A stretch of DNA of 64,000 bases from NCBI GenBank assembly GCA_026874595.1, contig CM049315.1, forward strand, positions 71,841,416 to 71,905,415, written 5' to 3'. Numbering within the stretch: the stretch's first letter is position 1; each line of letters starts with the position of its first letter. The stretch is from Sipunculus nudus. Lineage: Eukaryota; Annelida; Sipuncula; Golfingiida; Sipunculidae. This document shows positions 7,916 to 60,866 of this stretch, piece after piece. Both the position numbers and the translations under genes were made by a program. The notes beneath the pieces were generated by a model. The model made no database searches. It had not been told where the DNA came from and was given only the letters and a program-made list of their open reading frames with translations.

Positions 7916-7977
7916 TCAAATTCCCGACTGGGATATTATTAACATTTCCTTAAAAGACACCCCCCCCAACCCCAACC

Positions 7978-8267
7978 ACGACTGTGAAGTTCGACGGACG
8001 TCCGACGTCCATTTTTCGTGAAAATGCTCCGTGAATGCCTGCTCTTCCTCCGCTTTTAGCCGGAAACATATTTCCCTGACCAGCCTTCTGTTCACCGCTT
8101 TGCAGTGTATTTCGCTGATCATCGCTGCCCTCAAGGCTTCGTCAAGATCATGTATATCAAACGGTGCCAATACACGCTTTCTAATAGACAAATTTCACTA
8201 TTAATAAACACTAATTATGCGACTATTATTCTTTTTTTTTTAAATCTGCTTGATATAAAAAATGTTA
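7978..8267. repeat. Left inverted arm of foldback element
   Basis: Begins acgactgtgaagttcgacgg and contains on the minus strand an open frame of about 70 codons identical in protein to that in the right arm. One base difference was noticed (gtcaggg versus gttaggg). Confidence 0.88.
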
Positions 8268-16480: not shown

Positions 16481-16768
16481 TAACATTTTTTATATCAAGC
16501 AGATTTAAAAAAAAAGAATAATAGTCGCATTATTAGTATTATTAATAGTGAAATTTGTCTATTAGAAAGCGTGTATTGGCACCGTTTGATATACATGATC
16601 TTGACGAAGCCTTGAGGGCAGCGATGATCAGCGAAATACACTGCAAAGCGGTGAACAGAAGGCTGGTTAGGGAAATATGTTTCCGGCTAAAAGCGGAGGA
16701 AGAGCAGGCATTCACGGAGCATTTTCACGAAAAATGGACGTCGGACGTCCGTCGAACTTCACAGTCGT
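16481..16768. repeat. Right inverted arm of foldback element
   Basis: Reverse complement of 7978-8267. Sequence similarity stops exactly at cacagtcgt (16768), after which the flanking sequences differ apart from the direct repeat. Confidence 0.88.
16555..16767 (+). other. Conserved open frame in the inverted arm (also 7979-8191, minus strand)
   Basis: Encodes about 70 residues containing VLAPFDIHDLDEALRAAM and ICFRLKAEEEQAFTEHF, identical in both arms. No ATG opens it; a TGA lies at 16549. It is preceded by tttgtctattag, which resembles a splice acceptor, so it could be the last exon of a lost or captured gene. The family was not recognised. The frame runs past the element end into different flanks. 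Confidence 0.35.
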
Positions 16769-16854
16769 ACCCCAACCCCACCCCTCTTTTTGCCAAAGCG
16801 TGCCATGGGGCTCAAGCATCCTGACTCTCTGCCTGTCCTCCCCTCTCTCACCGG

Positions 16855-26094: not shown

Positions 26095-26338
26095 ATGGAG
26101 TATGAACATCTTGGACTTCTTCAGGACATGTTCCAGAGACAGTGTCTCCGGACTCCGGATAAAACAGCTGTAGTGACAGCTGACGGCAGACACATGACAT
26201 TTAAACAGCTTGATGAAGCAACAGAAGTCCTAGCAACACAGCTCCGCCTCCAGGGGGCAGAACCAAACAAAATTGTAGGAATCTACATGGAGCGCTGCCT
26301 GGAATATGTGGTGTCATATATTGCCATTCTGAAGTCAG
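26095..26338 (+). CDS. Coding exon 1 (A domain N-terminus)
   Basis: Starts at ATG 26095 ([13 protein letters not shown]) and ends at the donor CAG|GTACGT, phase 1. It encodes the N-terminal subdomain, including TPDKTAVV and the A1/A2-like stretch ending AILKSG. A pyrimidine-rich tract and AG precede the ATG, so the exon probably begins at 26078 with 17 nt of 5' UTR. An upstream in-frame ATG at 26056 falls inside the presumed intron. Confidence 0.9.
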
Positions 26339-29300: not shown

Positions 29301-32300
29301 CACTGTCTACTCCTCAGGCACCACAGGGAAACCAAAAGGTAATGGAGGGTTCACATTTGCGATACTCTCAAAAGAAGGGAATATCATGAAAAAAAACCTA
29401 CCACCTGAGGTTACATGTTTTTCCAGTTTGTCAACATTGGTGTGTTTACAAACATGTTGTTGATAAACAAGTTCAAACATCCTCCACAAAGGCCGTATAA
29501 AACCTTTTTACAACCAAAATTACTCTTAGATCATTTATATATACACAAATGAAGCCAGAAATCATATAAATTCTTTATCAAATGTTAGGTGAATGGGCAC
29601 CTTTAAGGACTCGGACTTGCATGATTTAGACCCAGATGGCTTGAACTTGTACTTATACTTGGACTCAAATTATATGGACTCGGCTACATCACTGTGTGCT
29701 TGATTTCTGTTTATTTACTCAGGCATCAAGTGTCCACATCGAGGAGCGGTGTTTTCTTATCACTGTCTGTTTATTTACTCAGGCATCCAGTGTCCACATC
29801 GAGGAGCTGTGTTTTCTTATTACTGTCCATTTATTTCCTCAGGCATCCAGTGTCCACATCGAGGAGCGGTGTTTTCTTATCACTCGCTGTTTACTAACTC
29901 AGGCATCCAGTGTCCACATCGAGGAGCGGTGTTTTCTTATCACTCGCTGTTTACTAACTCAGGCATCCAGTGTCCACATCGAGGAGCGGTGTTTTCTTAT
30001 CACTGTCTGTTTATTTACTCAAGCATCCAGTGTCCACATCGAGGAGCGGTGTTTTCTTATCACTCGCTGTTTATTTACTCAGGCATCCAGGGTCCACATC
30101 GAGGAGCGGTGTTTTCTTATCACTGTCTGTTTATTTACTCAAGCATCCAGTGTCCACATCGAGGAGCGGTGTTTTCTTATCACTCGCTGTTTATTTACTC
30201 AGGCATCCAGGGTCCACATCGAGGAGCGGTGTTTTCTTATCACTGTCTGTTTATTTTCTCAGGCATCCAGTGTCCACATTGAGGAGCGGCATTTTCTTAT
30301 CACTGTAAGTTTATTTACTCAGGCATCCAGTGTCCACATCAAGGAGCAGTGTTTTCTTTTCACTGTCTAGTTATTTACTCAGGCATCCAGTGTCCACATC
30401 GAGGAGCGGTGTTTTCTTATCACTGTCTTTTTATTTACTCAGGCATCCAGTGTCCACATCGAGGAGCGGTGTTTTCTTATCACTGGAGACATGAGAATTA
30501 TCCTTACAAAGATGATGACAGAGAGGCCTGTAATGTCTTCTTTGTTTGGGAAATGCTGCGGCCATTATTGAGAGGTGAGACAATTAAGGTAGCACAATAG
30601 GGAAAAACTCCTAAATCTAAAATCAGTCCAAAAGTTGTTTTAAGTCTATATTAGACCCATAAAGTATGCATTATTTTAAACCTGGTACAGTGAACAGTTG
30701 GGTGTAATACATTTTTATGAACTTTTCAATTATTTTAATTATTTGTAACATTTAATTAGGTACACTATTATAAGCACCCAGTAACAGTAGGCCACTTTTC
30801 AGTGGACTAATATTAAACTACATCAAGTCTTTTTCTCTCTCTCCTATGTGTCTTATCTTTTTAAAAAAAAATTTTTTTTTAATTGAATCAAAATCTAAAA
30901 TTTCATTTTAAGACAGATAGAGATATAATGGCGGATTATCGTTTGTAAGCACCTATCACATGATCTGGAACCAGAATGGAATTCTGCAGATGTACATAGT
31001 GTTATGTTAAGCAAGCATTAAAAAATGTCGATGGTCACCTCCACCAAAAAAATCTAAAAAAAAAGAATGTTGTTCATTTACATTGTTTTGCAGTTAAAGT
31101 CATTAAATAGTTATTAGACAGGTGTAACATCAGTTATCTGTTGTAGGAGTAACCTTGTATGTGATCCCCGACACTGTTATTTATGACCCGACCTTGCTGT
31201 GTGAGTTCATCAAGGAACACCAGATTACCAGGCAGCTTTATACACCATCTCTGCTAGAGACCGTCATTGACAATGCGGGGGACCTTGTCCCGCAGGCGTT
31301 CAAGAGTATGAGGTTTGTATCTAAACTTTGTAATGCTTCTCATGCAGAGGTTATACACTGCAGTCATCCCAGTTCTCCTCTTGTGTAACTGCTGCTTTGT
31401 GTAACAAGGTTTTCTGGGTCTGAACACCAGGATGTGCACAGATCAAGGAATTGTAATCAGACCAATGAGAGCAGGGTATCACATTGTGCATCCAGCTCCA
31501 AATTTTAAATATGTGACACCTGCTCTCATTGGTCTGATTACACTGTTCTGGCCAAAAGTCCAATAATAAGACCAATGAGGGCAGGTGCCCCAATCTCCTA
31601 ACAACATGAAAATTAATATATGCTTATAAATTCATCACAGAGGTGTTATATAAGAATCTTTCTCGATAGTACATATAACCAAAAGTTTATTTGTACACAA
31701 GCTAAATGTCTCATACATTGTACTGATATAAATCAGGTAAATACTGTGGTTGGCTTTATTTTTGCGAGGCTGAAATGAGAGGATTTCTTAATTTTGAATG
31801 TTTCACGAGGGTTTCATTTTCGTGATTGCACCAGAACCTGTAAAATCTAGTAAAGCAGGTTCTGTATTGATTTAGAGTTTAGAAAAAATCCTATAATACC
31901 TTACTAATTTCTGGTTCAGTCATTAAATCAGAACTTGTTCTCACTTTCGATATGTATCACAGTCTGTGTGTACAGCTAATGAATGGGCCAGTTTCAAAAC
32001 CAGGCACAAATTTGAACTTGTTTATCAGAGGTCATCTTAGTTGATTAGGCATCATATTCCCAAGTTTCATATTAGCCAATATAGTAAAATTAAAACCCTC
32101 GTGAATAAAAAGACAACCACAGTAGCTGGCTTTGAAATATAAATGTATATGTAAATGTGCAGAATAAAGTTTAAGTTGTCTTAAAAGTTTGCGTACATGT
32201 ATATTATACAGTTTGTATATGTGTCTTTTGCCAGGACTATAATATTCTGTGGGGAGGTAGTGACCACTGCCCTGCTTGACCGCTGCATTAAAGCCATGCC

Positions 32301-35300
32301 ACACATCCAGTTTGTTAATCTGTATAGTATCTCGGAGGCCCATGACGTCACTTGTGCTGATCTTACACAGTGGTACAACTCAAAACAGGTACACAGTAGG
32401 CAGCAATATATTTGCATGGGCAGGATACCCTATTTAATATGATAACTGTACTTTACCCCTATTTTGTGTGATAGAATAAAATAGATTATTAAAACAGAGC
32501 AAACTTTCTGTGGGCACATTTAGCTGAAATTGATAAGGATGCAATATATTTGACTCATTTATGGTAATTCATTGCCATGTTTATATCAATAATTTACTTC
32601 TTTTCATAAAAAATAAAACTTGCCATGGATGAAAGTTGATGTTGTAATGTGTTAGCACACCCTGTCCAGCAAATTTTTAGCCAAATGGCTGTCTAATGCT
32701 AAAAAAAAGTATTAGAGTACTTGATTCCAGGTAATACTCACTGAATATTCAAGTCCAAAATTTATACTCAAATACTTGTGTCTACATGCATTTAATTGAA
32801 AATTGCTGTAAACTTTGATCATTCACCATTTATCAAGGGTTAGGGTTAGTACCCTTATCTCAGTGACAAGCACTTAAGGTTAGATATGCCAGGGCCACAG
32901 GGCGTTTGCTGAATAAATACATTTTACATTGTTTTTATTTAAATTTATATAGTCTTGTTTGCCTTCATTCAGCTTTTCCTGCCAATAAAAATAATAGCAG
33001 AAATGACTAATGACTTTGTTTTTAAAGTTTTCCATAAAATTCATATGTCTTAAGAAGAGTATTTTTTACAGGGTAACATAACAGACCATAAGTTCTGCCC
33101 AGTGGGTAAACTCCTGCCAGGTGTGAATATTGTGATTCTGGATGAGAAAAGGGAACCTCAGCCAGTTGGAGTGCCAGGAGAGGTGAGTGAATATTGTGAT
33201 TCTGGATGAGAAAAGGGAACCTCAGCCAGTTGGAGTGCCAGAAGAGGTGAGTGAATATTGTGATTCTGGATGAGAAAAGGGAACCTCAGCCAGTTGGAGT
33301 GCCAGGAGAGGTGAGTGAATATTGTGATTCTGGATGAGAAAAGGGAACCTCAGCCAGTTGGAGTGCCAGGAGAGATGAGTGAATATTGTAATTCTGGATG
33401 AGAAAAGGGAACCTCAGCCAGTTGGAGTGCCAGGAGAGGTGAGTGAATATTGTAATTCTGGATGAGAAAAGGGAACCTCAGCCAGTTGGAGTGCCAGGAG
33501 AGGTGAGTGAATATTGTAATTCTGGATGAGAAAAGGGAACCTCAGCCAGTTGGAGTGCCAGAAGAGGTGAGTGAATATTGTAATTCTGGATGAGAAAAGG
33601 GAACCTCAGCCAGTTGGAGTGCCAGGATAGGTGAGTGAATATTGTAATTCTGGATGAGAAAAGGTAACCTCAGCCAGTTGGAGTGCCAGGAGAGGTGAGT
33701 GAATATTGTGATTCTGTATGAGAAAAGGGAACCTCAACCAGTTGGAGTGCCAGGAGAGGTGAGTGAATATTGTGATTCTGGATGAGAAAAGGAATCCTCA
33801 GCCAGTTGGAGTGCCAGGAAAGGTGAGTGAATATTGTGATTCTGGATGAGAAAAGGGAACCTCAGCCAGTTGGAGTGCGAGGAGAGGTGAGTCAATATTG
33901 TGATTCTGGATGAGAAAAGGAAACCTCGATCAGCCAGTTGGAGTGCGAGGAGAGGTGAGTAAATATTGTGATTCTGGATGAGAAATGGGAACCTCAGCTA
34001 GTTGGAGTGCCAGGAGAGGTGAGTGAATATTGTGATTCTGGATGAGAAAAGGGAACCTCAGCCAGTTGGAGTGCCAGGAGAGGTGAGTGAATATTGTAAT
34101 TCTTGATGAGAAAAGGGAACCTCAGCCAGTTGGAGTGCCAGGAGAGGTGAGTGAATATTGTAATTCTGGATGAGAAAAGGTAACCTCAGCCAGTTGGAGT
34201 GCCAGGAGAGGTGAGTGAATATTGTGATTCTGTATGAGAAAAGGGAACCTCAGCCAGTTGGAGTGCTAGGAGAGGTGAGTGAATATTGTGATTCTGGATG
34301 AGAAAAGGAATCCTCAGCCAGTTGGAGTGCCAGGAGAGGTGAGTGAATATTGTGATTCTGGATGAGAAAAGGGAACCTCAGCCAGTTGGAGTGCCAGGAG
34401 AGGTGAGTGAATATTGTGATTCTGGATGAGAAAAGGAAACCTCGATCAGTCAGTTGGAGTGCCAGGAGAGGTGAGTGAATATTGTGATTCTGGATGAGAA
34501 ATGGGAACCTCAGCCAGTTGGAGTGCCAGGAGAGGTGAGTGAATATTGTGATTCTGGATGAGAAAAGGGAACCTAAGCCAGTTGGAGTGCCAGGAGAGGT
34601 GAGTGAATATTGTAATTCTGGATGAGAAAAGGTTACCTCAGCCAGTTGGAGTGCCAGGAGAGGTGAGTGAATATTGTGATTCTGTATGAGAAAAGGGAAC
34701 CTCAGCCAGTTGGAGTGCCAGGAGAGGTGAGTGAATATTGTGATTCTGGATGAGAAAAGGAATCCTCAGCCAGTTGGAGTGCCAGGAGAGGTGAGTGAAT
34801 ATTGTGATTCTGGATGAGAAAAGGGAACCTCAGCCAGTTGGAGTGCCAGGAGAGGTGAGTGAATATTGTGAATCTGGATGAGAAAAGGAAACCTCGATCA
34901 GCCAGTTGGAGTGCGAGGAGAGGTGAGTGAATATTGTGATTCTGGATGAGAAATGGGAACCTCAGCCAGTTGGAGTGCCAGGAGAGGTGAGTGAATATTG
35001 TGATTCTGGATGAGAAAAGGGAACCTCAGCCAGTTGGAGTGCCAGGAGAGGTGAGTGAATATTGTAATTCTGGATGAGAAAAGGGAACCTCAGCCAGTTG
35101 GAGTTCCAGGATAGGTGAGTGAATATTGTAATTCTGGATGAGAAAAGGTAACCCCAGCCAGTTGGAGTGCCAGGAGAGGTGAGTGAATATTGTGATTCTG
35201 TATGAGAAAAGGGAACCTCAGCCAGTTGGAGTGCTAGGAGAGGTGAGTGAATATTGTGATTCTGGATGAGAAAAGGAATCCTCAGCCAGTTGGAGTGCCA

Positions 35301-50300: not shown

Positions 50301-53300
50301 TGATCAGGTACACATACAGTTGATTTTTTTTCCATATATGACATGCCTAACTGCTTATTGCATAAAGGTAAGAGATCCCAGCGGTATGATCCAGTTAAAC
50401 TATGCAAGCATAAAATTAAAATTAACAAGTTAATGCTGAACTCTGAGAGGCAGATTATCTTTCTGATCTCAGTTTTATCATAATTAGAGCATGTTATAAT
50501 TGATTTATAAATCTTCTTTCAGTGATTTAAGACTTGGGTCCTGGATTCTGGACCTTAGTCTGCTATCTCTGTGTCTCAGACTTGAACTAGATGTTCCTGG
50601 ACCAGATTTGCTTTTGAGAAATCAAGTCCAGTCTGTTTTAAGTCCAGTAGCATTTGTCTCTGTTGTCTACTTTGTCACGTTAAGATTGGTTAAGTAAAAA
50701 AAACCTGCATTAACTAACATATAATACTCATGATTATCTCTTTTTTTACATTTTTAAAATATATTTTTATTGGACTCAGACTTTGACTTTTGTTTCTAAA
50801 AGACCAGGACTCAAAGATGGTAGACTAAAATGGACTCAAAACTTAAATGATCAGACTAGCACTTCATCTCGGAGAGTGTGGACTTGTCTACTGCACTCTG
50901 TCCACTGTCACGTATCCTGTGTTTACCATTTTATACATTACAGGGATGAGTCTTTCTTCACCTCACTGAGTACCTACACAAATGATGGTTTCCAGTCAGT
51001 GTTAAAAACTCTGGACATTTCATACCCAGAACTCAGCTACGATCTCATCAGCCGCTACTTCCAGGGTCTGACGGCTCAGGGAATCCTCCCTAAACCTCAG
51101 CGTACCTTCATGTCAGGTGAGACCAACAACTCCAAAACTATATGTTAGAAAAATAAGAAAAGGGTAGAGACATGCACTGTCAATACGTGTTTTCCCAGAT
51201 CACAAGCTGGCCCAATCACCTGTAAAGCTGCATCAAAGCTTGCTGACAGATGTATGAGGTGTTTATCTATGCCCTTTGCAAAATCTGGTTGACCTGATAT
51301 GCCGACAGATGTCTTTGCCGAGTGAGCTATTGGATCAGCATTTTCTGATATTATCTTTTAGTTAAAGGGGCCCAATCATCTACAAAGCAGGTTGAGTTAA
51401 CATGAAAAATAGCTTATTCCCTTTTAAATAAATCTGTAGCTGCCAAAATATTGCCTTGAAACCATTTGCTTACTCCTGTAAACGAGTGTTAAAAACAGTG
51501 AACCGGGTGCGATCGCAGGTGTTAACATAAAAACAGTGCATTGGGCCATGTGCTGTGTGGAGCCACAATACATGCCAATTAGGAGATGCCCTGACTTACT
51601 TGGCTAAAAAAATGTAATACATGTTCCTGCTGGCTGAAAGACCACGTGTTGCCCCTTAATCGGACCTCCGGTCACGCGGTCTTGATATGGTAAACAGACT
51701 GTGTTTAACAACAAGCAGGGCTATAACAGGGTATTAAACAGTCGAATGCAAGGAAATGAGGCTGTGTGCTGGAATGTTTAACTGGGGAAACTTTTGTATA
51801 AAGCAAAACTGAACTGATAGTGTGAAAGAATAGGAATAATATTGCTCCTGATTATGTCTCTTTAATAGATGTCAGATTTCTCAGATATTGGAACAGATCC
51901 CATTAACTTTGCTGGCCAGACAAGGTTTACAAGTCTCAGCTGGAAACTGGGTTGACATGTTGGAGGGGGGTTAATATTAGATATTAAATAAATGATTTAA
52001 GTGATAAGAGCATGTTTATATTACTTACTTTCCAAAGTCCACTGAGTGATTATCAGGAAAATAAGGTTTTATAAAGAACAAGACAAGTATATTTGAATAA
52101 CCACACTTGTACTTTAGCCAGAGCAAGTGGCATTTAAGTTTCATTATCCCGAGAGTGCATCTTTAAATTTCAGTGGCAGATTGATTCCATAATATTGTTT
52201 TTATTGGTTTCATACATTCTCCATGTAGATCATATATCATGCTTTTTTTCAAAATTGCCCCCATTCAATGGGTAAGACATAAAAATTTACCCAATAGTTT
52301 TCTCCCAAGTAACCTGTAATATGGTGACATCTGCAGGGAGATTTTTACACTAGAACTCACATAGTTTGTTGTTTATACAGCAGATGGCAGCACAATTATT
52401 ATGCAACTGGTATTATATTTTACCATTTCTATTGCACAACATTGAGTGTGGCTTGAGTACTTTAAGATTATAAAACATATATATTGTTACAGTTACAATA
52501 TATTTTTTAAAGTAAGTCAATCAAGACTGATCTGATCATGGAAAGTAAATTAACAGACAACAAAGCAACTCAGCATGGTGGGTATGTATTTATGACATTG
52601 CCAATCACTGGTGAAAATGTAAATACACCAGGTATTATAATCATTTTTTATTAATGTTTGATTTAAAAATTATTGATGTTTAAGTCCGAATATCACATTA
52701 TCATCTGATGCAGGACAAGGATTGGCTTTCTGATCATGCAGAAATCTTGAATTTTTCATTTCAACTTTGATTGTCATTTGGTTTGAACCAAAATCCATGA
52801 TGGGGGGGGGGGGGGGGGGGGTTATTCAGGGTTCGGGAAAGGAGAGGGGACTGCAACCCAGGGAAACCAAATTGGGAAATCCTTATAATCTAGGTCCGGA
52901 AAAAGGGAGTCTAGACCAGAAACATTGGTTTTAAACCCTTTTATTTGTTGCCATGGGGGGGGGGGGCTGCTAAGGGGGGGGGGGGGGTCCCTGTTTGTCC
53001 CCTCTGCATCCACTACTGAAATTTTGGTGTAACCTGTTTACATTTATTTTCGATTTCCAACAAATTTTGACACTTTACATTAACAAAAATTTAGCAGTAT
53101 CTTTTTTTCAACTTTGTTGTATAGATATTTACCAAATTTTCAACAGCTTTTACTGAGACTGTTTACTTAAGGTTATTTGGAATCTTTGAAACATTAAAAT
53201 AAATATGCAATAATGTTTGCCCTTAAAGAGTCTAGCCATAAAAGGAGTTTTAGGTGCCAAATTTTAGTGTGCTATAGTGAGGCTGTAAATTGTAAAGGGT

Positions 53301-56300
53301 TAATTAAGGCACCCAAATGATTATTTGTAACCTTTTGAGAACTTCACAAGGTTAAATTTGATCTATTACAGTAAGTCCACCCTTCCCTCTCCTAAAAATT
53401 AAGAAATTAATTAAAATAGTGCTTGCACAGTGAAACCTCGAAATTATGACCACCATTGGACCAAGATAAAGTGGTCACATTTTCAATGTGGTCATCTAAA
53501 CAAGGTCTGACTTAAAGAGCAAAAAAAAATGGGACCATGGAAAAGTGGTTGTTATTTTGAGGTGGTCACTAAACTGAGGTGGTTGTTTAAGGCAGGGTTT
53601 TACTGTAGTTACTTTTGACTTTCAAATACAGGAGCAGCTCTTGCTGGGAAGGTTGCCATAGTGACAGGTGCATCCAGTGGAATCGGGGCAGCAGTTTCCA
53701 AGGCACTGGCTAAAGCAGGATGTAAGGTTGCTATAGCAGCAAGGAGGATAGAAAAACTGCAGCAGCTGAAAGATGAGATTGAGGCTTCGGGAGGAATCGC
53801 TCTGTCAGTAAAAACAGATGTCACAAACAAAGAGGAGGTAATTATTTTATTGTAGACAAACATAAAATGTGGAATAAACTGTGGTTTTTCAGAATATCAC
53901 TGCACATGAATAAAGAAAACCCAGTAGTTATAGGCTAAGGCCATGAATGACACTTTATAGTCAGTATATACCTGGGCCGGATCCAGAACTTTTGGAAGGA
54001 AGGGGTTTCAAGTTACACTGATGGATTAATGCCTTAGCCTTAAAAGTAATTTTTCATAGGATTGAGTTAATCTCGGCCCCCCCCCTTTAGATTAGATACT
54101 ATCAGGGTTAGAACCCATTAATTAAACAGCCAGACAAACCTGTGCATGATCAAATTGTTTGAAAATTGAAATTGGTCACTATGACTTGGTTAAAATTTGC
54201 ATTACCTTTTTAGTACACATAGAGTACAGAGTTTTAATTAATTACTCAGTCACATAAGTATTTCTGAGGATGATATTTCCCAGAAATTCCCAGAAGGGAG
54301 TATTTCCCAGGTTGGGAATTCCCACAACAAGAGTTCCCAAAAAGAGTTAAGATTGCGTTTCATTTTTCTTCTTTATTCAAGTTTTTTATTCTTCCACATT
54401 TATGCTCAGTGAAAGGCTCCAATGGTTGGTTTTATTGTGCAGTGGGTAGCCAGTCAGATGCTGCTTAACTGATTTGTGGCCAGTGATGTTTTGCCTCGCT
54501 AATGCTGGGCCATCGACTGTTATTAAAGGCCAGATGTCACCAGTTAAAAGTCAGACTTTCTTTTGGATTGTCATATTTTGTCAGTGTATCAATCTGGGGC
54601 CTACTGACCATATTGATATAATATTTGACTTTATATTGCAATGTAGTCGGGCACTGGTGAATCTGTACAGCCCTGATAATCAGTGGTGATTAACACATAT
54701 TTGGCAGAGAGGCACCAAACAACTTCATTTACTTAGGCCAAAAAAAAAATAAGGTATGGTTCTCAGGCACTTTTTTTCAGAAATCAGTGCGGGCGAGCGG
54801 TATTTTATTTTTGACCTTTTTTTGAGTGTCTCCATAAAAATGTCATATGATCAGGGAAAAGTATGAAAATAACAATTTTTTTTGCAAAACAGGGAAAAGC
54901 ACTACATAAATTGTAATATTCATCTTCTTGAAAGATAAAAATCAAAATAAAAATTGTTGATGGGGGGGGGGGGGGGTAAAAATTGATGCGGGCGGTGCCT
55001 GAGAACCATACCTTTTATTTTTTTTGGCCTTAGTGGTTTGTAGTCAGCTGTGGTTGACTACCAATTAATGTTGGTTCTTTTGTTACCCAACAATTTTTCA
55101 TAATATGGTCTGATTGGTCAAGAGCTTTGTGGGCAATGCCATATATGGCATATATGGCATTGTGTTTGTTCACGCATGATGCCCTAGCCATTTAGCTGAA
55201 TTATTAGACTAGTTAGTAGTCACCTCCACTGACCCATGCTTGGCATGATAACCTGACGGATGTCTTGTCCTGCCTCACTGGTCACAAGAAATGGGCTGAA
55301 AACTGGCTACACAATACAGGCTGAATATGAACAATAAAAGGTCAATATTTTTTTTTATTTTGAATAATTTTCCATAAACATTAATTTTTTTCAGAAACCT
55401 TCAGTTCCTGAGCTTTCAGGAAATGTTTTATTAGGGCCTCGCTTGACAAGCTGGAGCCCTATAGTGATCACCATGTCAGTCTGTCCTTCCGTCCATCCGT
55501 CCTTCCTTCAGTGACACTTTCTTTCACGCACTATAACTCAAGAACAACATACTGCAGCTTTCCCAAATTAACGGGGTTGATTGGTACCTATGAGGGCTCC
55601 AGACCTATCAAATTACAGACTTGTCTGAATTCCATTATGGCTGGCACAGCCCAAACGCTGTTTTCTTTTGTGCGTGATAACTCAACAACAACATTCTGCA
55701 GCTTTCCCAAATTCACAGGAATAATTGTTACCTATGAGGGCTCCAGACCTATTGAATTACAGACTTGTCTGAATTCCAGTATGGCCGCCACAGCCCAAAT
55801 GCTGATTTTCTTTCGCACGATAACTCAACAACAACATACTGCAGCTTTTCCAAATTCACAGGAATGATTGGCACCTATGAGGGCTCCAGACTTATTGAAT
55901 TACAGACTGGCTCAAAATCAAATGTGGCCAACAGATTACATTTGGTGATTTTCTATTGCACACATTATTTCAGACATATCTTCTTTAATATCATTTGATT
56001 CAGTAGGATTTTTTTCCCTCATGCATATGGATAAAAACCTGTTTCTGTTTGTCATATTTTTCAAATTTTACTTAATTTTTCACCCATGTGAAAACTGGTC
56101 CAGCACTTGCAGAAACGTGGGGCCCTCTGAGGACCATTGTCCGACCATATCTAGTTTTATAATAGGACCATGTTCAGTATTTTTTCTGGTAAATCTATTT
56201 TGAGCTGGTAGATTTATGGTTGAACCTCTGTGGTTACAGGTAGAGAACCTGGTCCAGCAGACAGAGTGTATACTGGGACCTGTAGACATCCTTGTCAACA

Positions 56301-59300
56301 ACGCCGGGGTCATGTACTACACCATGATGAAGAACCTGCAGGTGGACCAGTGGATGAGGCAGGTGGATCTCAACTGCAAGGCAAGTACATGTGTGCCTGT
56401 AATTAAAATGAAAGAAACTTTCACCTGATAAAGTTGTTGATCTCTACTGCAAGGCAAATACATGTGTACCTGTAATTAAAATGAAAGAAACTCTCACCTG
56501 ATGAAGTTGATGATTTCAACTGCAAGGCAAGTACATGTGTGCCTGTAATTAAAATGAAAGAAACTTTCACCTGATAACGTTGTTGATCTCTACTGCAAGG
56601 CAAGTACATGTGTACCTGTAATTAAAATGAAAGAAACTCTCACCTGATGAAGTTGATGATTTCAACTGCAAGGCTAGTACATGTGTACCTGTAATTAAAA
56701 TGAAAGAAACTCTCACCTGATGAAGTTGATGATTTCAACTGCAAGGCTAGTACATGTGTACCTGTAATTAAAATGAAAGAAACTCTCACCTGATAAAGTT
56801 GATGATCTCAACTGCTAGGCCAGTACATGTGTACCTGTAATTAACATGATAGAAACTCTCACCTGACAAAGTTGATGATTTCAACCTCAAGGCAAGTACT
56901 TGTTTACCTGTAATTAAAATGAAAGGAAGTCCCACCTGATAAAGGTAATGATCTCAGCTGCAAGGCAAGTACATTTTTACCTGTAATTAAAATGAAAGAA
57001 ACTCTCACCTGATAAAGTTGATGATTTCAACTGCAAGGCAAGTACATTTGTACCTGTAATTAAAATGAAAGAAACTCTCACTTGAGGAAATTGATGATCT
57101 CAGCTGCAAGGGAAGTACATGTGTACCTGTAATTAAAAAGAAAGAAACTCTCACCTGATAAAGTTTTATTAATTCAACTGCAAGGCAAGTACATTTGTAC
57201 CTGTAATTAAAATGAAAGAATCTCTCACCTGATAAAATTGATGATCTCAACTGCAAGGCAAGTACATGTGAACCTGTAATTAAAAAGAAAGAAACTCTCA
57301 CCTGATTAAGTTGATGAATTCAACTACAAGGCAAGTACATGTGTACCTGTAATTAAAATGGCAGGCATTGTATATTGGACCAGTAAACATAAATTGTGCC
57401 TTGATACAAGCCACACAGGGGAATGCACTGCAAGGCTATCCATCCTGTTGTATAGATATGGTGGTGAACAGGGCTCCAATAATCTGAATATTAGGCTCAG
57501 ATTGATGAATTAACAGAAAAGAATACATGGGGAACTCACAAACCAATGTGAAAATCTGTCTTAATAGTAAGGAGACATTTCCTGTATTATATGCAAGTTG
57601 GCTATTGTCCATTAACCCCTGGAAGCCATGCTTGTATTTCATGTGGTCAGAAAATCAGCAAACATGGAGGTGGAGTTTCCAAATGCTGTGTTAAAACAAA
57701 ATTTTTCTTGCACATGGTAGATGGTGTTTTAAAGTGTAGTAAAATAGCTGACAGTTAGTCTGGTTTATATCAAGTGACAGTGTACTTGTCGCCATGAGGC
57801 ACTGTAAAAAAGTCTAGCATAGATTCAGACCCACACCTCCCAGTGCATCAGTCTAGTAGTCAGGCTAACCTGTCATCAACCATGACTGGTTTTATATCCA
57901 CATTAATATAATATTCATGTTTCATCTTAATTTCATCAGGAAATTAATATATTAATTGCAAAATGTTTTAATTCTGTTCCAGAATCTACTTTTTGAACAA
58001 TTTTACGTTCTGTTACTTTTTGATTATATCAATTTAAAGTCATGTTTCTTGGGTTTTATTCCCAAATGTGATGATATGATCCTACCATATTGATTTTATA
58101 TCAGTTATATTTTATATAACCACATTGGTTCAGAACATGTTATTTTACCTACAAATATGCTTTAAAAGTCAAAAGACAGTTGTTATTATTTATCATTTTG
58201 CTACAACAGGGTATGCTGAACTGCGTGGCCTGTGTGCTGAACGGTATGATTGCCAGAGGTGAAGGCCATATTGTTAACATGTCATCAGATGCTGGTAGAA
58301 AGGTATCAGTAATATTTTTATCAGTTATTAGTCCCACAGTGGGCTCTCCTTTGGGCGACCATCCTTTCTGTCAATGAAATATGGTTTATAATTGAGGTTG
58401 ATTGTTTAACTGGTAACCATTTACAATTTGTTAGCTTCATGAAACAGAAATCGGCGCAAAAATCAGAGTATTTAACAAATTTTCAAGTACAGCATAGTTA
58501 TATTTCCTGTATGCTACCTTAAACTTTAAGATAAATTTTATTAACCAAAATAGATCAGAGTAAATATATAGTGATTTAGATATACAAGTATATAAAGTTA
58601 ATGTTCAACTTTGATGGCAACAGGACAATTACCCCCTGGACAATATCCCCCGGATAATTACCCTCCAAACAATTACCTCCAGACTATAACCCCCAAGTTA
58701 ATTTGTTTTTAATTATTGACATTATCAATATTAACAGGTGCTGGTGTCAAAGACTAATATTATGAATAATGTGACATTATTACATTATCTGCTGTTTCAA
58801 GAATTTCCAGTTCTTCAGCATCCCCTTCATCCATCTAGAAGGTATATAGAGCATTATTTAAATATTTCATGCAATAAAGGATAGAGTCTACATTATGTCA
58901 AAATATAATATGTGGGGTTTACTGTATTGTGAGACTGTGAAAATGAAAACCTCACAAAACACTGTAAAAGTTGAAATTGTGAAATTTTATCCTCGCAAAT
59001 ATGAAGCCAACCACATTAATTACCCAACTCCTTTAAATGCAGTTGTATTTGCATGTATTACAAAAACAATAGTTCTCTTTGTTGGTGTGAATATGTTTTA
59101 ATCAAATAAGAAATTGGTTTTAATTCTAAAGGTGAAGAACATTTGCAATGTGCTTTATATCATGCCAAAAGCTTATTTTTGCTGAATTCAAAAGTTCTTA
59201 GCAGACCCATCCTGGCACAAGGGCTTATCATCTCCAGTTCACCCAATTTATTCATTGTTATGGTCCTGTGTGTGAGTAAACACAGTCCATATGTATCTGT

Positions 59301-60034
59301 TTACCATAACATGACATACAGCAAAAATACTAATGTGAATAAAAGAAGGGACAAAGAAGAAACAGGGGTTTGAAGCTTGAAAAATCTTGTTTTGTAAAGT
59401 TGCACTGTATGGCCACCAGGTGGCATTGGCTAAATTTATATTTTGCACCACTGATCACACCTGGTTCAAGCTTTTTCCACTTCTTACTGGAGCAGGTGAA
59501 AGGTTTAAGAATGAAAACATTTTATGGAGAAAACAATTTATTTCTTGTATATTTAACATACCTGGTATGTGAAAATGTCCCTTTAAGGTATGGTATTCAA
59601 GACACTCATGGCCTCTTGCACAGACTAGACAGTATCTTGAGAATAAACTTAACCTTTGACCACAGGCTAGCCTGATACATTAATCATCTTTAGCCTCATA
59701 TTTGTCTTTGCAGGGTTTTCCAGGTCTGGCTGTGTACTCAGGGACCAAATTCTTTGTAGAAGGGACATCCCAGGCCATGAGACAGGAACTGTGTGGGTCA
59801 GGGGTCAAGGTCACCTGTATACAGCCAGGAGATGTGAAAACAGAACTTCTCACTCACACCACAGATACAGAGGTAAGCTGATGAGCGTGGTTTTTAATGT
59901 TTTATATGGATGACTAATTTTCTCTGATATGTGCTCCTATAAACTACAAATATTTTACTCACATTGGAAAGAGAGAGGGACAGAAAATTTGGTATACACA
60001 CAAGATACACACACATACATACATAGTTACATAC

Positions 60035-60096
<62 letters not shown>

Positions 60097-60866
60097 GTGA
60101 AAATATAAATTCCTGGGTAGTCTGTGAGATTGAACCCACACAGCCTGTACAAAATTCCAGCGCTCTACCCCCTACACCAATAATGCTAGCTTCATTTGTG
60201 AAGCCAGTAGGAATTCTTTTATATGCACCATCACATTAATATATATAAGATTGTGGCTTCATTGTACTGTGATATTCAGGAAAAGAACTTTCTGTAATTG
60301 CGTTCTTCAAAATATGATTGACAGATGGGAAGCCATTCTGTATGTAGGCAAACTTGATTCCGGAACACACATTTTATTTTGATAAGGGAGCCTAAAAGAA
60401 TAAACAAAAATCTAGAGGATACTCTTCAGAACCAAAGGTTATATCTTAATATCTTGGTTATCTTGAATATTTTAAATTTATCTGTGGTAAAATACTTTAC
60501 TCTCTGTAAGATTAATCATACATATTTTTCACCTAGGAGATAAGAGAAAATAGTTAATTTGTCCTTAATTGTGAGTAGCCAAAATATTATTACAGCATGT
60601 AACTATTATCATGTTTTGTGTAAATTTTTATTTTTAATGTTTCCAATAGGTTCTTTAAAGGTTGTCTTTTCTTTAAAATGTCATAAATCTAATTAATTTA
60701 CAAATTTTTCTTCCATTATCAGGCTCGCAGTCAGTATGATGGCAGTGCCACCACAAAGATATTGGAACCAGAAGACATTGCAGGAGCTGTGTTGTATGCC
60801 GTTACACAGCCCCCGTATGCTGCTGTCAATGAAATCTTAATAGAACCGAGGGAGGCACCAGTCTAG
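26095..60866 (+). CDS. NRPS-like A-T-R1-R2 reductase, 25 coding exons (candidate glycine betaine reductase)
   Basis: The joined exons give 1281 residues with no internal stop. Seen: an adenylation domain with [10 protein letters not shown] (162-171), [10 protein letters not shown] (299-308), YSTGD (397-401), KIRGY (422-426) and GKLDKK (505-510); a carrier domain with FFDMGGHSLLA, Ser562 being the phosphopantetheine site; a thioester reductase domain with TGATGFLG (658-665) and GYSQSK (Tyr828, Lys832); and a classical SDR with TGASSGIG (1046-1053), NNAG (1123-1126), Asn1148, Ser1176 and YSGTK (1189-1193). Known: the same order in fungal ATRR performs two hydride reductions, glycine betaine to aldehyde to choline; Lys2 and carboxylic acid reductases lack the final SDR. 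Inferred: cytosolic enzyme using ATP and NAD(P)H and needing a phosphopantetheinyl transferase. No signal peptide or membrane segment is visible. The ATG at 26095 was chosen because it follows a 3' splice acceptor (ag at 26076-26077) by 17 nt and begins the A-domain N-terminus; a non-coding 5' exon is therefore likely upstream. The substrate is not proven; another acid is possible. Confidence 0.93.
26379..26402. repeat. (GT)n microsatellite in intron 1
   Basis: About 12 GT units starting 40 nt after the exon 1 donor. Confidence 0.93.
27886..28230. mobile_element. Harbinger-like MITE B, copy 1 (intron 1)
   Basis: Ends are inverted repeats (ggccaaaataaaa... / ...ttttttggcc, and further in 'ggttctcagg'/'cctgagaacc'). 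It is flanked by the direct repeat TAA (27883-27885, 28231-28233). It contains a poly-G run. Confidence 0.82.
28344..28460 (+). CDS. Coding exon 2 (A domain)
   Basis: Acceptor tttcttcag at 28343; donor ACAG|GTATCT. Phase 1 to 1. The junction codon makes [14 protein letters not shown], the A2/A3-like motif of adenylating enzymes (usual form LKAGGAYVPLD), which confirms the splice. Confidence 0.92.
29189..29338 (+). CDS. Coding exon 3 (A domain, ATP-binding loop)
   Basis: Acceptor ataaatcag; donor AAAAG|GTAATG. Phase 1 to 1. It carries [14 protein letters not shown], the A3 phosphate-binding loop, with the last Gly split over the intron to exon 4. Confidence 0.93.
29701..30480 (+). repeat. 60-bp minisatellite spanning the acceptor of exon 4 (13 copies)
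   Basis: Each 60-bp unit holds about 18 nt of intron end (polypyrimidine and tcag) followed by the first 42 nt of exon 4. All 13 units keep the AG and near-identical sequence. The unit is 20 codons long. In the exon's frame the only stop is TGA at 30280-30282 in copy 10. Copy 10 also ends in a new donor-like GTAAGT at 30305. Confidence 0.95.
30443..30574 (+). CDS. Coding exon 4 (A domain; duplicated acceptor)
   Basis: The most downstream of 13 tandem copies of the same acceptor is assigned as the real one because it joins exon 3 without insertion, giving [11 protein letters not shown], as expected just after the A3 loop. Phase 1 to 1, donor AGAG|GTGAGA. It contains NVFFVWEM (201-208), the A4 region that lines the substrate pocket; Val202 stands where amino-acid-activating domains have Asp. 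Two of the upstream acceptors would add 20 or 40 residues in frame. Confidence 0.88.
31147..31312 (+). CDS. Coding exon 5 (A domain)
   Basis: Acceptor ctgttgtag; donor ATGAG|GTTTGT, a weak donor. Phase 1 to 2. It encodes [11 protein letters not shown] and the helix-strand region ending [10 protein letters not shown]. The pocket residue equivalent to GrsA 278 is Leu245 by eye alignment. Confidence 0.9.
31453..31541. repeat. 23-bp perfect hairpin in intron 5
   Basis: 31453-31475 is the reverse complement of 31519-31541, with a 43-nt loop. A third partial copy (gaccaatgagggcagg) follows at about 31570. It could be a small MITE remnant or an RNA hairpin. Confidence 0.8.
32235..32388 (+). CDS. 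Coding exon 6 (A domain, A5)
   Basis: Acceptor ttttgccag; donor ACAG|GTACAC. Phase 2 to 0. It encodes [10 protein letters not shown] and [11 protein letters not shown], the A5 motif; Cys275, Leu299, Asp307 and Val308 fall at pocket positions. Confidence 0.92.
33072..33182 (+). CDS. Coding exon 7 (A domain; amplified donor)
   Basis: Acceptor ttttttacag; donor GAG|GTGAGTG. Phase 0 to 0. It encodes the A6-like region from GNITDH to VGVPGE. The last 57 coding nt plus the donor form the first unit of a 64-bp minisatellite filling the next 3 kb. Use of the second donor would read into an in-frame TGA within the first repeat. Confidence 0.92.
33126..36190 (+). repeat. 64-bp minisatellite spanning the donor of exon 7 (about 47 copies)
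   Basis: The unit is the last 57 nt of exon 7 plus gtgagtg of intron 7. Almost every copy keeps a consensus donor (gag|gtgagt). Variant units recur as blocks of about 390-520 bp (units with ctcgatcag near 33924, 34440, 34893, 35344 and 35726, each followed by an aaatggga unit), so the array grew by multi-unit duplications. Confidence 0.95.
36191..37496. other. Rest of intron 7; nothing recognised
   Basis: AT-rich intron between the 64-bp array and exon 8, with no credible coding frame or clear repeat. Confidence 0.5.
37497..37715 (+). CDS. Coding exon 8 (A domain, A7 and A8)
   Basis: Acceptor cgctttcag; donor ATACAG|GTTATA. Phase 0 to 0. It encodes [27 protein letters not shown] (Asp401 binds the ATP ribose in this family) and [15 protein letters not shown], the A8 hinge. 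Confidence 0.94.
38151..38403. mobile_element. MITE D in intron 8 (TAA duplication)
   Basis: Terminal inverted repeats of about 24 bp with two mismatches (agcccaaaacacactaatgc / reverse of gcgttagtctgttttgggct), flanked by TAA on both sides. The interior holds CACGTG and other palindromic pieces. Confidence 0.78.
39280..39476 (+). CDS. Coding exon 9 (A domain C-terminal subdomain)
   Basis: Acceptor tattttcag; donor GCCAG|GTAGGA. Phase 0 to 2. It encodes [19 protein letters not shown] and [13 protein letters not shown], the A9 motif. Confidence 0.93.
40000..40215 (-). repeat. Dispersed repeat F, inverted copy (intron 9)
   Basis: Reverse complement of a segment like 58330-58545: 'cagtgggctct.ctttggg.gacca', 'ttacaatttgt.agcttcatga' and 'aaattttcaagtacagca' are shared. 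Confidence 0.75.
40256..40444 (+). CDS. Coding exon 10 (A10 and start of carrier domain)
   Basis: Acceptor ttttccacag; donor GGAGG|GTTAGT. Phase 2 to 2. It encodes [16 protein letters not shown] with the catalytic Lys506, then the first helix of the carrier domain ending ESFFDMGG. The carrier motif is split by the intron just before its Ser. Confidence 0.92.
41006..41221 (+). CDS. Coding exon 11 (carrier domain)
   Basis: Acceptor atataccag; donor ATTAA|GTAAGT. Phase 2 to 2. It completes [11 protein letters not shown], where Ser562 is expected to carry the 4'-phosphopantetheine arm, then [22 protein letters not shown] Ser/Pro/Thr-rich linker follows towards R1. Confidence 0.94.
41390..41560 (+). 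mobile_element. MITE C, copy 1 (cagtgaaa termini, intron 11)
   Basis: Runs from cagtgaaatcttgaaattat to agggttcacttta. Shares 'aaagtggtcat', 'ttaaagagcaaaa' and 'aaagtggttgttac' with 53428-53605. Confidence 0.7.
41600..41700 (+). repeat. tRNA-like SINE head (intron 11)
   Basis: Contains an A-box-like tagcttagtggttaaggc and a B-box-like gattcaagccc about 45 nt later, spaced as in a tRNA. No intact cloverleaf was confirmed, so it is read as a SINE remnant. Confidence 0.5.
42359..42494 (+). CDS. Coding exon 12 (R1 nucleotide-binding start)
   Basis: Acceptor tctgtcacag; donor ACAAAG|GTCTGT. Phase 2 to 0. It encodes [20 protein letters not shown], the Rossmann glycine motif (TGATGFLG, 658-665) of the NRPS/Lys2-type thioester reductase domain. 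Confidence 0.94.
42830..42992 (+). CDS. Coding exon 13 (R1)
   Basis: Acceptor ttttttacag; donor TTGCAG|GTCAGA. Phase 0 to 1. It encodes [19 protein letters not shown], the second Rossmann strand with the Arg that contacts the cofactor in this family, and a helical segment. Confidence 0.92.
43020..45182 (+). repeat. 19-bp minisatellite filling intron 13
   Basis: About 110 degenerate copies of a 19-bp unit close to cctgtaaaggaatagtgta. The array begins about 30 nt after the exon 13 donor and stops about 85 nt before exon 14. It contains few stops on the minus strand, so it produces long periodic spurious reading frames there. Confidence 0.95.
45268..45383 (+). CDS. Coding exon 14 (R1)
   Basis: Acceptor ccattgtag; donor TATCAG|GTAGGA. 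Phase 1 to 0. It encodes [15 protein letters not shown] and [16 protein letters not shown], typical of thioester reductases (GDL...LGL...IIHNAA.V). Confidence 0.94.
45612..45804 (+). mobile_element. MITE A, copy 2 (intron 14)
   Basis: From gaagtggatccagg to ggatctgcccctg, with the 7-bp direct repeat cagttca on both sides. Confidence 0.78.
45892..46055 (+). mobile_element. MITE C relative, copy 2 (intron 14)
   Basis: Starts cagtgcaaccacc and ends ggggttcaactg, with the same 'aaagtggtcctaatt...gtggttgtaatt' interior pattern as the other copies. Confidence 0.6.
46294..46379 (+). CDS. Coding exon 15 (R1)
   Basis: Acceptor cctttttcag; donor ATATCAG|GTTTGT. Phase 0 to 2. It encodes [16 protein letters not shown] and NKIKPLHHI, leading into the catalytic S/T of exon 16. 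Confidence 0.93.
46848..46912. repeat. gacagacggatg simple repeat
   Basis: Repeated gacaga/gacgga units in intron 15. Confidence 0.85.
47035..47525. repeat. 'ggactcggacttg' dispersed repeat (intron 15)
   Basis: Many gacttggactc-like pieces. Related stretches lie at 29610-29695 and 50520-50880. The three share the style 'gactcggacttg..cttgtact'. Confidence 0.6.
48426..48592 (+). CDS. Coding exon 16 (R1 catalytic Tyr/Lys)
   Basis: Acceptor tatctgcag; donor GACCTG|GTAGGG. Phase 2 to 1. It encodes STDGVFPEG (S799/T800) and [14 protein letters not shown], where Tyr828 and Lys832 form the YxxxK active site, then CTIYRPG. Confidence 0.95.
48954..49179 (+). CDS. Coding exon 17 (R1 C-terminal part)
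   Basis: Acceptor cattgtccag; donor TTCAA|GTAAGA. Phase 1 to 2. It encodes [17 protein letters not shown] and [15 protein letters not shown], the substrate-side region of extended-type reductases ending in [12 protein letters not shown]. Confidence 0.93.
49549..49620 (+). CDS. Coding exon 18 (R1)
   Basis: Acceptor tctcaccag; donor GAAAG|GTATTT. Phase 2 to 2. It encodes [23 protein letters not shown], matching the usual GYP...V.Y..W region near the end of these domains. Confidence 0.92.
49862..50190 (+). repeat. Dispersed repeat E, copy 2 (intron 18)
   Basis: Matches 21648-21990 over its length and ends in a cacaaacacaca run. Confidence 0.75.
50239..50307 (+). CDS. Coding exon 19 (R1)
   Basis: Acceptor atactttcag; donor GATCAG|GTACAC. 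Phase 2 to 2. A short exon of 69 nt encoding [22 protein letters not shown]. Confidence 0.88.
50944..51116 (+). CDS. Coding exon 20 (R1 end and linker)
   Basis: Acceptor acattacag; donor ATGTCAG|GTGAGA. Phase 2 to 1. It encodes [16 protein letters not shown], a helical end of R1, and [15 protein letters not shown], the linker to the SDR. Confidence 0.92.
51117..52795. other. Intron 20, first part; nothing coding recognised
   Basis: Intron separating the R1 and R2 coding regions. No credible coding frame. It holds one CTCF-like motif at 52377-52390. Confidence 0.5.
52800..53025 (-). mobile_element. MITE A, copy 3, inverted (intron 20)
   Basis: Poly-G tracts and 'aggtccggaaaaaggg' correspond to the reverse complement of 45690-45730. 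The far end near ccctctgcatccact matches the cggatcc terminus poorly. Confidence 0.6.
53428..53605 (+). mobile_element. MITE C, copy 3 (intron 20)
   Basis: From cagtgaaacctcg to agggttttactg, giving imperfect terminal inverted repeats. It ends only 26 nt before exon 21, so it may contribute the branch-point region. Confidence 0.72.
53632..53837 (+). CDS. Coding exon 21 (R2 SDR start)
   Basis: Acceptor tcaaatacag; donor GAGGAG|GTAATT. Phase 1 to 0. It encodes [16 protein letters not shown] (cofactor loop 1046-1053), then [13 protein letters not shown], where the two Arg suggest NADPH preference, and [10 protein letters not shown]. Confidence 0.95.
54736..55029. mobile_element. Harbinger-like MITE B, copy 2 (intron 21)
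   Basis: About 36-bp terminal inverted repeats (ggccaaaaaaaaaataagg ... accttttattttttttggcc), same interior as 27886-28230, flanked by TTA on both sides (54733-54735, 55030-55032). TWA duplications are typical of PIF/Harbinger elements. Confidence 0.85.
55500..55935 (+). repeat. Three tandem ~145-bp copies in intron 21
   Basis: Each copy has 'ataactcaacaacaacat.ctgcagctttcccaaatt', 'acctatgagggctccagac' and 'tacagacttgtctgaattcc'. Confidence 0.85.
56240..56380 (+). CDS. Coding exon 22 (R2; GC donor)
   Basis: Acceptor tggttacag; donor TGCAAG|GCAAGT, a GC donor otherwise matching the consensus perfectly. Phase 0 to 0. It encodes [18 protein letters not shown] (NNAG 1123-1126) and QVDLNCK with Asn1148 of the SDR tetrad. 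The next exon continues KGMLNC, as expected, which supports the GC splice. Confidence 0.93.
56366..57360 (+). repeat. 73-bp minisatellite spanning the GC donor of exon 22 (14 copies)
   Basis: The unit contains about 15 nt from the end of exon 22 (gatctcaactgcaag) plus 58 nt of intron starting gcaagtacatgtg. Fourteen copies of the donor region were counted from 56374. Most keep aag|gcaagt; copies 5, 6, 7 and 11 have changed it. Confidence 0.93.
57361..58209. other. Rest of intron 22; nothing recognised
   Basis: AT-rich intron sequence without clear repeats or coding frames. Confidence 0.5.
58210..58302 (+). CDS. Coding exon 23 (R2, catalytic Ser)
   Basis: Acceptor gctacaacag; donor AGAAAG|GTATCA. 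Phase 0 to 0. It encodes [19 protein letters not shown] and [12 protein letters not shown]; Ser1176 lies 13 residues before the catalytic Tyr. Confidence 0.94.
58330..58545 (+). repeat. Dispersed repeat F, direct copy (intron 23)
   Basis: Counterpart of the inverted copy at 40000-40215. It begins about 28 nt after the exon 23 donor. Confidence 0.75.
59413..59426 (+). promoter_or_regulatory. CTCF-like motif (intron 23)
   Basis: CCACCAGGTGGCAT matches the bilaterian CTCF consensus CCASYAGRKGGCRS at 13 of 14 positions. Confidence 0.4.
59714..59872 (+). CDS. Coding exon 24 (R2, catalytic Tyr/Lys)
   Basis: Acceptor tctttgcag; donor ACAGAG|GTAAGC. Phase 0 to 0. It encodes [17 protein letters not shown] (Tyr1189, Lys1193) and [16 protein letters not shown], the usual PG motif after the active site. 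Confidence 0.95.
60003..60090. repeat. (CATA)n and (AT)n microsatellite (intron 24)
   Basis: acatacatacatac followed by about 40 nt of alternating AT. Confidence 0.93.
60105..60195 (-). repeat. tRNA-like SINE head (intron 24)
   Basis: On the minus strand: A-box-like gtgtagggggtagagcgctg, then a B-box-like gggttcaatctc about 45 nt later. The AT microsatellite beyond its 3' side could be the SINE tail. A functional tRNA is unlikely because the acceptor stem cannot be formed clearly. Confidence 0.55.
60723..60866 (+). CDS. Coding exon 25 (R2 end, stop)
   Basis: Acceptor cattatcag; phase 0; ends at TAG 60864-60866. It encodes [29 protein letters not shown], the conserved C-terminal SDR segment (EDIA.AV...QP..V.VNEI), then a short tail. 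Confidence 0.95.

What the first reader, a model, noticed from the sequence alone, without database searches (positions are those of the whole stretch)
26095..60866. Animal A-T-R1-R2 NRPS-like reductase, a candidate glycine betaine to choline reductase
The exons join into one frame carrying adenylation, carrier, thioester reductase and a full classical SDR with intact catalytic residues. This order matches fungal ATRR, whose product is choline. Animals are known to oxidise choline to betaine; a reverse reductive route in a bivalve, where betaine is a major osmolyte, would be a notable metabolic addition. The architecture is seen directly; the substrate is inference.
Basis: partly seen in the sequence, partly recalled or inferred. 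Interest (0 to 1): 0.88.

Follow-up and report, generated by a model that had tools for sequence, protein, structure and literature searches.

The report
Animal betaine-to-choline reductase gene (ATRR)
This animal gene encodes a four-part enzyme of the ATRR kind, which most likely turns the salt-stress protectant betaine back into choline; such enzymes are already known from fungi and nematode worms, so this is a good new example of a known kind.

Summary
At 26095-60866 (+) 25 exons join into one 3840-nt frame of 1279 aa; the 24 introns all end in AG, 23 start with GT and one with GC. Pfam finds AMP-binding, PP-binding, NAD_binding_4 and adh_short in that order: A-T-R1-R2. The SDR cannot start by itself in exon 21.

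A new test bears on the substrate. The A domain lacks the loop that carries Asp235, which binds the amino group in amino-acid A domains: 34 residues from PKG to W, against 38-40 in 48 of 53 bacterial comparators. The five comparators with the short loop are its sister group (100/100). PMC7496086 describes such a loop in glycine-betaine-activating ATRR-A and DMSP-activating BurA-A. Lys2 and CAR models score far under their cut-offs.

The substrate is therefore probably a betaine. Glycine betaine to choline is the best reading, unproven. The claimed novelty shrinks: a nematode ATRR with yeast evidence is in print, and that paper says invertebrate atrr genes were seen in 2019. New member of a known kind.

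The parts
26095..60866 (+). Whole coding region, 25 exons, 1279 aa, order A-T-R1-R2
   Evidence: join, phases, splice sites; Pfam
26095..40444 (+). Adenylation (A) domain, exons 1-10: 26095-26338, 28344-28460, 29189-29338, 30443-30574, 31147-31312, 32235-32388, 33072-33182, 37497-37715, 39280-39476, 40256-40444
   Evidence: AMP-binding aa 13-371, AMP-binding_C aa 433-500
30443..30574 (+). Exon 4: A-domain stretch with the shortened loop NVFFVWE in place of the usual FDxSVWE (Asp235 lost)
32235..32388 (+). Exon 6: carries YSISEAHD with Asp307, the acidic residue three after the conserved Glu
40256..41221 (+). Carrier (T) domain, exons 10-11; phosphopantetheine site Ser562 in DMGGHSLL
   Evidence: PP-binding aa 534-597
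42359..51116 (+). Thioester reductase R1, exons 12-20: 42359-42494, 42836-42992, 45268-45383, 46294-46379, 48426-48592, 48954-49179, 49549-49620, 50239-50307, 50944-51116; GATGFLG, YSQSK
   Evidence: NAD_binding_4 aa 657-901; TIGR01746 276.1 bits, over its cut-off of 213.35
53632..60866 (+). Classical SDR R2, exons 21-25: 53632-53837, 56240-56380 (GC donor), 58210-58302, 59714-59872, 60723-60866; [12 protein letters not shown], Ser1174, YSGTK

Best explanation
An animal ATRR-type NRPS-like glycine betaine reductase. Proposed working: the A domain uses ATP to activate a betaine carboxylate. The phosphopantetheine arm on Ser562 takes it as a thioester. R1 uses NADPH to release it as betaine aldehyde. 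R2, a classical SDR in the same chain, reduces the aldehyde to choline. Shown here: intact gene, domain order, catalytic motifs, loss of the amino-group-binding Asp loop, and grouping with A domains that share that loss. Inferred: glycine betaine as substrate, NADPH as cofactor, choline as product, expression, physiological role (recovery of choline from stored betaine).
For: Intact 25-exon frame. A, T, R1, R2 in order. R1 is over the thioester-reductase cut-off. The best PDB match of R2 is clavulanic acid / clavaldehyde dehydrogenase (E 5.8e-54), and sulfoacetaldehyde reductase is further down the list: aldehyde-handling SDRs. The A domain is 5 residues shorter exactly at the Asp235 loop; 5 of 53 bacterial comparators have the short loop, and those 5 form a clade with it at 100/100. 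[quoted passage not shown] D307 here is three after the conserved Glu, as in the 5 clade mates. Same four domains in the same order, and nearly the same length, as nematode MiATRR (1306 aa). R2 has no start of its own in exon 21. The same genome carries a choline dehydrogenase frame over the betA cut-off on C11 (776 against 732.1 bits), so the opposite reaction is encoded too.
Against: No fungal or nematode ATRR sequence was available, so neither identity nor the ten-residue pocket code was compared; the 2019 PNAS paper is not held. DMSP-loading BurA-A is described with the same loop, so the loop marks a class of onium acids rather than glycine betaine alone. Loss of the FD pair alone is not telling: 6 of the 48 comparators of ordinary loop length lack it too. 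An acidic residue three after the Glu also occurs in 3 of those 48 (L034, L041, L042), and where D307 falls against GrsA 330/331 depends on a gap. The tree tool flags the query, L003 and nine other rows for unusual composition. Many names in the R2 PDB list are 3-oxoacyl-ACP reductases. R1-R2 pairs also occur without A-T: the bacterial model PRK07201 (NF005539) matches aa 655-1233, under its cut-off, and a 679-aa frame on C113 matches 692-1264. No RNA evidence.
Confidence: 0.68

Rival explanations
1. Same enzyme kind and chemistry, but the substrate is another onium acid: DMSP, beta-alanine betaine, gamma-butyrobetaine or carnitine. The product would be the matching alcohol, not choline.
For: BurA-A, which activates DMSP, is described with the same short hydrophobic loop and acidic residue. 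The nearest bacterial A domains found sit in thioesterase-A-T-ketosynthase proteins of unknown product; two of the five were checked by Pfam. A reference title in PMC10577664 names beta-alanine betaine in marine invertebrates.
Against: The A-T-R1-R2 architecture is the one reported for glycine betaine reductases in fungi and, with a yeast test, in a nematode. Glycine betaine is abundant in clams and other molluscs (passage in PMC10577664), if this animal is one.
Confidence: 0.2
2. An aminoadipate reductase (Lys2-like) or a general carboxylic acid reductase (CAR) with an extra SDR.
For: Both kinds are A-T-R, and both models match the protein.
Against: Lys2 model TIGR03443: 414.9 bits against a cut-off of 1030.1. 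CAR model NF041592: 187.4 against 1300. The Asp235 loop is missing.
Confidence: 0.05
3. Two neighbouring genes, an A-T-R1 enzyme and a separate SDR, wrongly joined.
For: Intron 20 is long (2515 bases) and no RNA is at hand.
Against: The phases fit (1 to 1). Exon 21 has a stop just upstream in its frame, and no Met before TGASSGIG. The joined order equals published ATRR.
Confidence: 0.05

Closest known systems
Fungal ATRR (glycine betaine reductase of Aspergillus nidulans, 2019; paper not held, known here through PMC11050029)
   Same: A-T-R1-R2 order; short hydrophobic loop in place of the D235 loop, as described for ATRR-A in PMC7496086
   Different: Animal gene with 25 exons; sequence identity and pocket code not compared because no fungal sequence was available
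Nematode MiATRR of Meloidogyne incognita (PMC11050029)
   Same: Animal, four domains in the same order, 1306 aa against 1279 here
   Different: MiATRR has yeast, RT-qPCR and RNAi data, this gene has none; sequences not compared
BurA-A, the DMSP-activating A domain (PMC7496086)
   Same: Short hydrophobic loop without Asp235, by description
   Different: Part of an assembly line, not a reductase; sequence deliberately not fetched
   Same: Sister clade to this A domain, 38.8-41.6% identical; short loop in 5 of 5
   Different: Thioesterase-A-T-ketosynthase architecture in the two checked, no R1 or R2 in the stretches read
Clavulanic acid (clavaldehyde) dehydrogenase, PDB 2jah/2jap
   Same: Best PDB match of R2
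   Different: Chain of 247 aa on its own, not fused

Membership tests
ATRR glycine betaine reductase | Domain order A-T-R1-R2 in one chain | tested here: met
   no transcript
ATRR glycine betaine reductase | D235 loop replaced by a shorter hydrophobic loop | tested here: met
   34 residues PKG-to-W, NVFFVW; 48 of 53 comparators have 38-40; description from PMC7496086
ATRR glycine betaine reductase | Acidic pocket residue for the onium group | tested here: inconclusive
   D307 three after the conserved Glu; shared by 5 of 5 clade mates but also by 3 of 48 others; exact GrsA position depends on a gap
ATRR glycine betaine reductase | Ten-residue pocket code of fungal ATRR | not testable with these tools
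   The text of PMC11050029 that I saw points to a figure for the code; PNAS paper not held
ATRR glycine betaine reductase | Groups with fungal or nematode ATRR in a tree | not testable with these tools
   No eukaryotic sequence collection besides the window's own genome
ATRR glycine betaine reductase | Activity: glycine betaine to choline | not testable with these tools
   bench work
Lys2 aminoadipate reductase | Passes the TIGR03443 cut-off | tested here: not met
   414.9 against 1030.1 bits
Carboxylic acid reductase (CAR) | Passes the NF041592 cut-off | tested here: not met
   187.4 against 1300 bits
Thioester reductase domain | Passes the TIGR01746 cut-off | tested here: met
   276.1 against 213.35 bits
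Alpha-amino-acid A domain (ordinary NRPS) | FD of FDxSVWE (Asp235) | tested here: not met
   NVFFVWE here; FD present in 42 of 53 comparators; TIGR01733 just under its cut-off, 311.3 against 317.4

The most novel reading that the evidence does not exclude
The enzyme belongs to a wider, little explored class of onium-acid A domains shared by animals, fungi and bacterial NRPS-PKS proteins. In this animal it reduces a marine onium acid such as DMSP or beta-alanine betaine, alone or besides glycine betaine, to an alcohol not yet described in animals.
Probability: 0.15. Interest if true: 0.72.

Novelty: new member of a known kind. Interest (0 to 1): 0.46.

Why it matters
The usual animal route runs from choline to betaine (CDH and BADH; passage in PMC11702833). 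An intact ATRR in an animal that, if it is a marine mollusc, stores much betaine would let it turn osmolyte back into choline for membranes, for example when salinity falls. The genome also has a choline dehydrogenase frame, so the cycle could run both ways and can be tested directly. The short-loop A-domain clade also offers a simple sequence marker for betaine-activating enzymes in animals and bacteria.

Tried and rejected
Fungal ATRR paper: not held. Close relatives by peptide patterns: genome contigs gave 2 loci at 22% identity, viral contigs none. Bacteria with the full order: 93 of 398 genomes of one phylum have a match at E <= 1e-60, with at most 2 candidates scored in the rows shown; the listed matches end at residue 1012 or before, so none enters R2, which starts at about 1033. 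Plasmids: 754 of 72,556 records match and 4 cover 80% or more in one place; the 15 rows that I saw of 754 end at residue 1028 or before. A-domain query from G123 at E <= 1e-95: 1 of 48 genomes of its class, itself; 0 of 199 genomes of another phylum, without a positive control. That limit is strict: the rhizobial relatives in the plasmid search lie at 3e-95 to 1e-105. These searches do not show absence in bacteria.

Second copy in the own genome: none seen among the 36 scored of 379 candidates. Rfam: 0 matches in the window. Flanking ORF lists were read by eye only and not searched against families. The bacterial promoter and terminator scan of the 3' end says nothing about an animal gene. No structure prediction was tried: the tool takes proteins that the DNA gives letter for letter, and this one is spliced. 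The idea that D307 is diagnostic was weakened by the control (3 of 48). Lys2 and CAR were rejected on cut-offs. One literature search on exon-derived minisatellites found nothing with 5 of 6 terms.

Rows dropped: L001, L002 and L049 were left out of the A-domain set (L001 and L002 are 22% hits, L049 repeats L003). The 46 unnamed comparators are L003-L048: the 6 loci that cut out plus 40 hits that I chose by hand from its list, mostly from its upper part, with some second hits of a genome skipped and a few lower hits added. The 7 named ones, L050-L056, were chosen from 25 listed plasmid hits. So the set is not a random sample.

GrsA position numbers, motif names (A3, A10, FDxSVWE), the SDR Ser-Tyr-Lys roles and the NADPH preference are recalled, not from a call.

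Full report
What is there. I rebuilt the gene from the sequence. Peptide cores of each exon were located, then joined at splice sites. The result is 25 exons, 26095-60866 on the + strand, 3840 nt, 1279 aa, no internal stop. All 24 acceptors are AG; 23 donors are GT and one (exon 22) is GC in the context AAG|GCAAGT. The window lies in G000:C10, in a genome of 1.43 Gb. Twenty-four spliceosomal-type introns of 341 to 4314 bases speak against a bacterial gene.

Domains. Pfam: AMP-binding aa 13-371, AMP-binding_C 433-500, PP-binding 534-597, NAD_binding_4 657-901, adh_short 1039-1231. NCBIfam (best 25 of 337 families shown): the thioester reductase model TIGR01746 is passed (276.1 against 213.35 bits). 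The Lys2 model (414.9 against 1030.1) and the CAR model (187.4 against 1300) are not. The general amino-acid adenylation model is just missed (311.3 against 317.4). PDB by sequence: A-T resembles linear gramicidin synthase subunit A best (60 of 228 shown). R2 resembles clavulanic acid / clavaldehyde dehydrogenase best (E 5.8e-54); sulfoacetaldehyde reductase is in the list, but many names there are 3-oxoacyl-ACP reductases (60 of 649 shown). Motifs are complete: Y161[11 protein letters not shown]506, carrier Ser562, R1 Y826SQSK830, R2 T1044GASSGIG, Ser1174, Y1187SGTK1191. The roles of these residues are recalled knowledge of the families.

Is the SDR part of the same protein? Exon 21 enters in phase 1, as exon 20 leaves. 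In the frame of exon 21 a stop lies a few codons upstream of the splice site, and the first methionine of R2 comes at residue 94 of that piece, after TGASSGIG. So R2 cannot begin in exon 21 by itself. Only RNA can settle it.

Substrate. In the PDB alignment the query lacks five residues at the place where linear gramicidin synthase has the FSFDGS loop, with the aspartate that binds the amino group (Asp235 in GrsA; numbering recalled). To see whether this is unusual I searched 398 genomes of one bacterial phylum with the whole protein: 93 of 398 have a match at E <= 1e-60. The best by score, in G123 (L003), is 44% identical over residues 9-470. I fetched 40 more hits and aligned 46 A domains with the query, then added 7 from named plasmids: 53 comparators. 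From PKG to the tryptophan the query has 34 residues. Of the 53 comparators 46 have 39, one 38, one 40; five have 32-34: L003 and four from Mesorhizobium and Sinorhizobium plasmids. A maximum-likelihood tree of the 54 rows puts the query with exactly those five at 100/100, on a long stem (0.92 changes per column). The indel and the tree agree, though both come from one sequence set. Composition is flagged for 11 rows, the query and L003 among them, and the comparators are best matches, not a random sample.

The literature gives the meaning. In PMC7496086 (passages), ATRR-A, which activates glycine betaine, and BurA-A, which activates DMSP, are said to have the conserved D235 loop replaced by a shorter loop with hydrophobic residues, plus an acidic residue placed to meet the positive charge. 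The query has NVFFVWE at the loop. Lack of the FD pair alone is not special: 6 of the 48 comparators of ordinary length lack it as well; the shortening is what sets the clade apart. The query also has D307, three residues after the conserved Glu; all five clade mates have it, but so do 3 of the 48 others, so I count it as weak. The loop therefore says 'carboxylate without a free alpha-amino group, probably an onium acid', and does not by itself tell glycine betaine from DMSP. Of the bacterial relatives, L003 and L050 were checked by Pfam: thioesterase-A-T-ketosynthase, product unknown to me.

How it most likely works. ATP-dependent activation of glycine betaine, transfer to the carrier, reduction to betaine aldehyde by R1, reduction to choline by R2. 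This is the published scheme for ATRR (PMC11050029; I read parts 1 and 2 of 6, abstract to results 2.6, and passages). Shown here are gene, order, motifs and the loop. Substrate, cofactor and product are inferred. The genome also holds a frame over the cut-off of the choline dehydrogenase model on C11, so the oxidative direction is encoded too. Fused R1-R2 pairs are not unique to ATRR: a frame on contig C113 of G000 matches residues 692-1264 and the bacterial model PRK07201 matches 655-1233 below its cut-off.

Known or new. [quoted passage not shown] It also says that five of ten pocket sites in those nematodes differ from A. nidulans. PMC10531068 (passages) surveys animal NRPS, molluscs included; the word 'betaine' does not occur in its main text. 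In the rows that I saw of searches (some lists were cut, for example 20 of 124 and 15 of 5,324) no title told of a molluscan or bivalve ATRR; the library lacks most subscription journals. So it is a new member of a known kind: a well-formed animal case that makes betaine-to-choline flux testable.

Doubts. No fungal or nematode sequence could be compared. Comparison was with bacteria only. There is no RNA. The absence of bacterial four-domain proteins was looked for in limited samples only; the searches looked for the A domain alone.

Noticed in passing
window 29706-30485 and exon 4 (30443-30574): 60-bp minisatellite (13 copies) that runs 43 bases into exon 4 and repeats its acceptor; 11 acceptor copies counted. 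The two copies just upstream (30323, 30383) would add 40 or 20 aa in frame without a stop, inside the A domain.
   Followed up: partly
window 33123-36179 and exon 7 (33072-33182): 64-bp minisatellite (47 copies) that starts 60 bases before the end of exon 7 and repeats its donor; 38 donor copies counted. Of the first five donor copies only the first gives a frame without a stop.
   Followed up: partly
window 56366-57360 and exon 22 (56240-56380): 73-bp minisatellite (13.6 copies) that starts in the last 15 bases of exon 22 and repeats its GC donor (7 exact copies). With the two above, three arrays in one gene straddle an exon edge; whether that exceeds chance was not tested.
   Followed up: partly
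window 43046-45177: 19-bp minisatellite, about 112 copies, filling most of intron 13; it does not reach exon 13 or exon 14.
   Followed up: no
G000 C1:78473175-78785964 (L057 = C1:78676000-78685999): Open frames of 716-2534 aa that match NRPS A domains in a 110.9 Mb contig of the same genome; the 1933-aa frame in L057 has two stretches each of AMP-binding, Condensation and PP-binding (GC of L057 0.40). Further A-domain frames of 676-1923 aa lie on C3, C4, C8, C11, C16, not examined. Animal NRPS genes or transferred ones.
   Followed up: partly
G000 C61-C75, C89, C113, C118, C133 (several of these contigs): Contigs with enzyme frames uninterrupted over whole domains, some matching with identical scores on several contigs; they look bacterial (symbiont or contaminant strains), which was not tested.
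   Followed up: no
L003, L050-L053: Bacterial proteins with a betaine-type short-loop A domain, thioesterase-A-T-ketosynthase in the two checked (L003, L050); in Sinorhizobium numidicum and S. mexicanum the VW of the loop is altered.
   Followed up: partly
window 6823-16824: Large satellite arrays upstream of the gene (180-bp unit, 6 copies; 171-bp, 7.6; 169-bp, 41). Two frames in opposite directions, 7916-8194 (-) and 16552-16824 (+), that start with the same 72 residues flank the last two arrays, so an inverted repeat encloses them.
   Followed up: no
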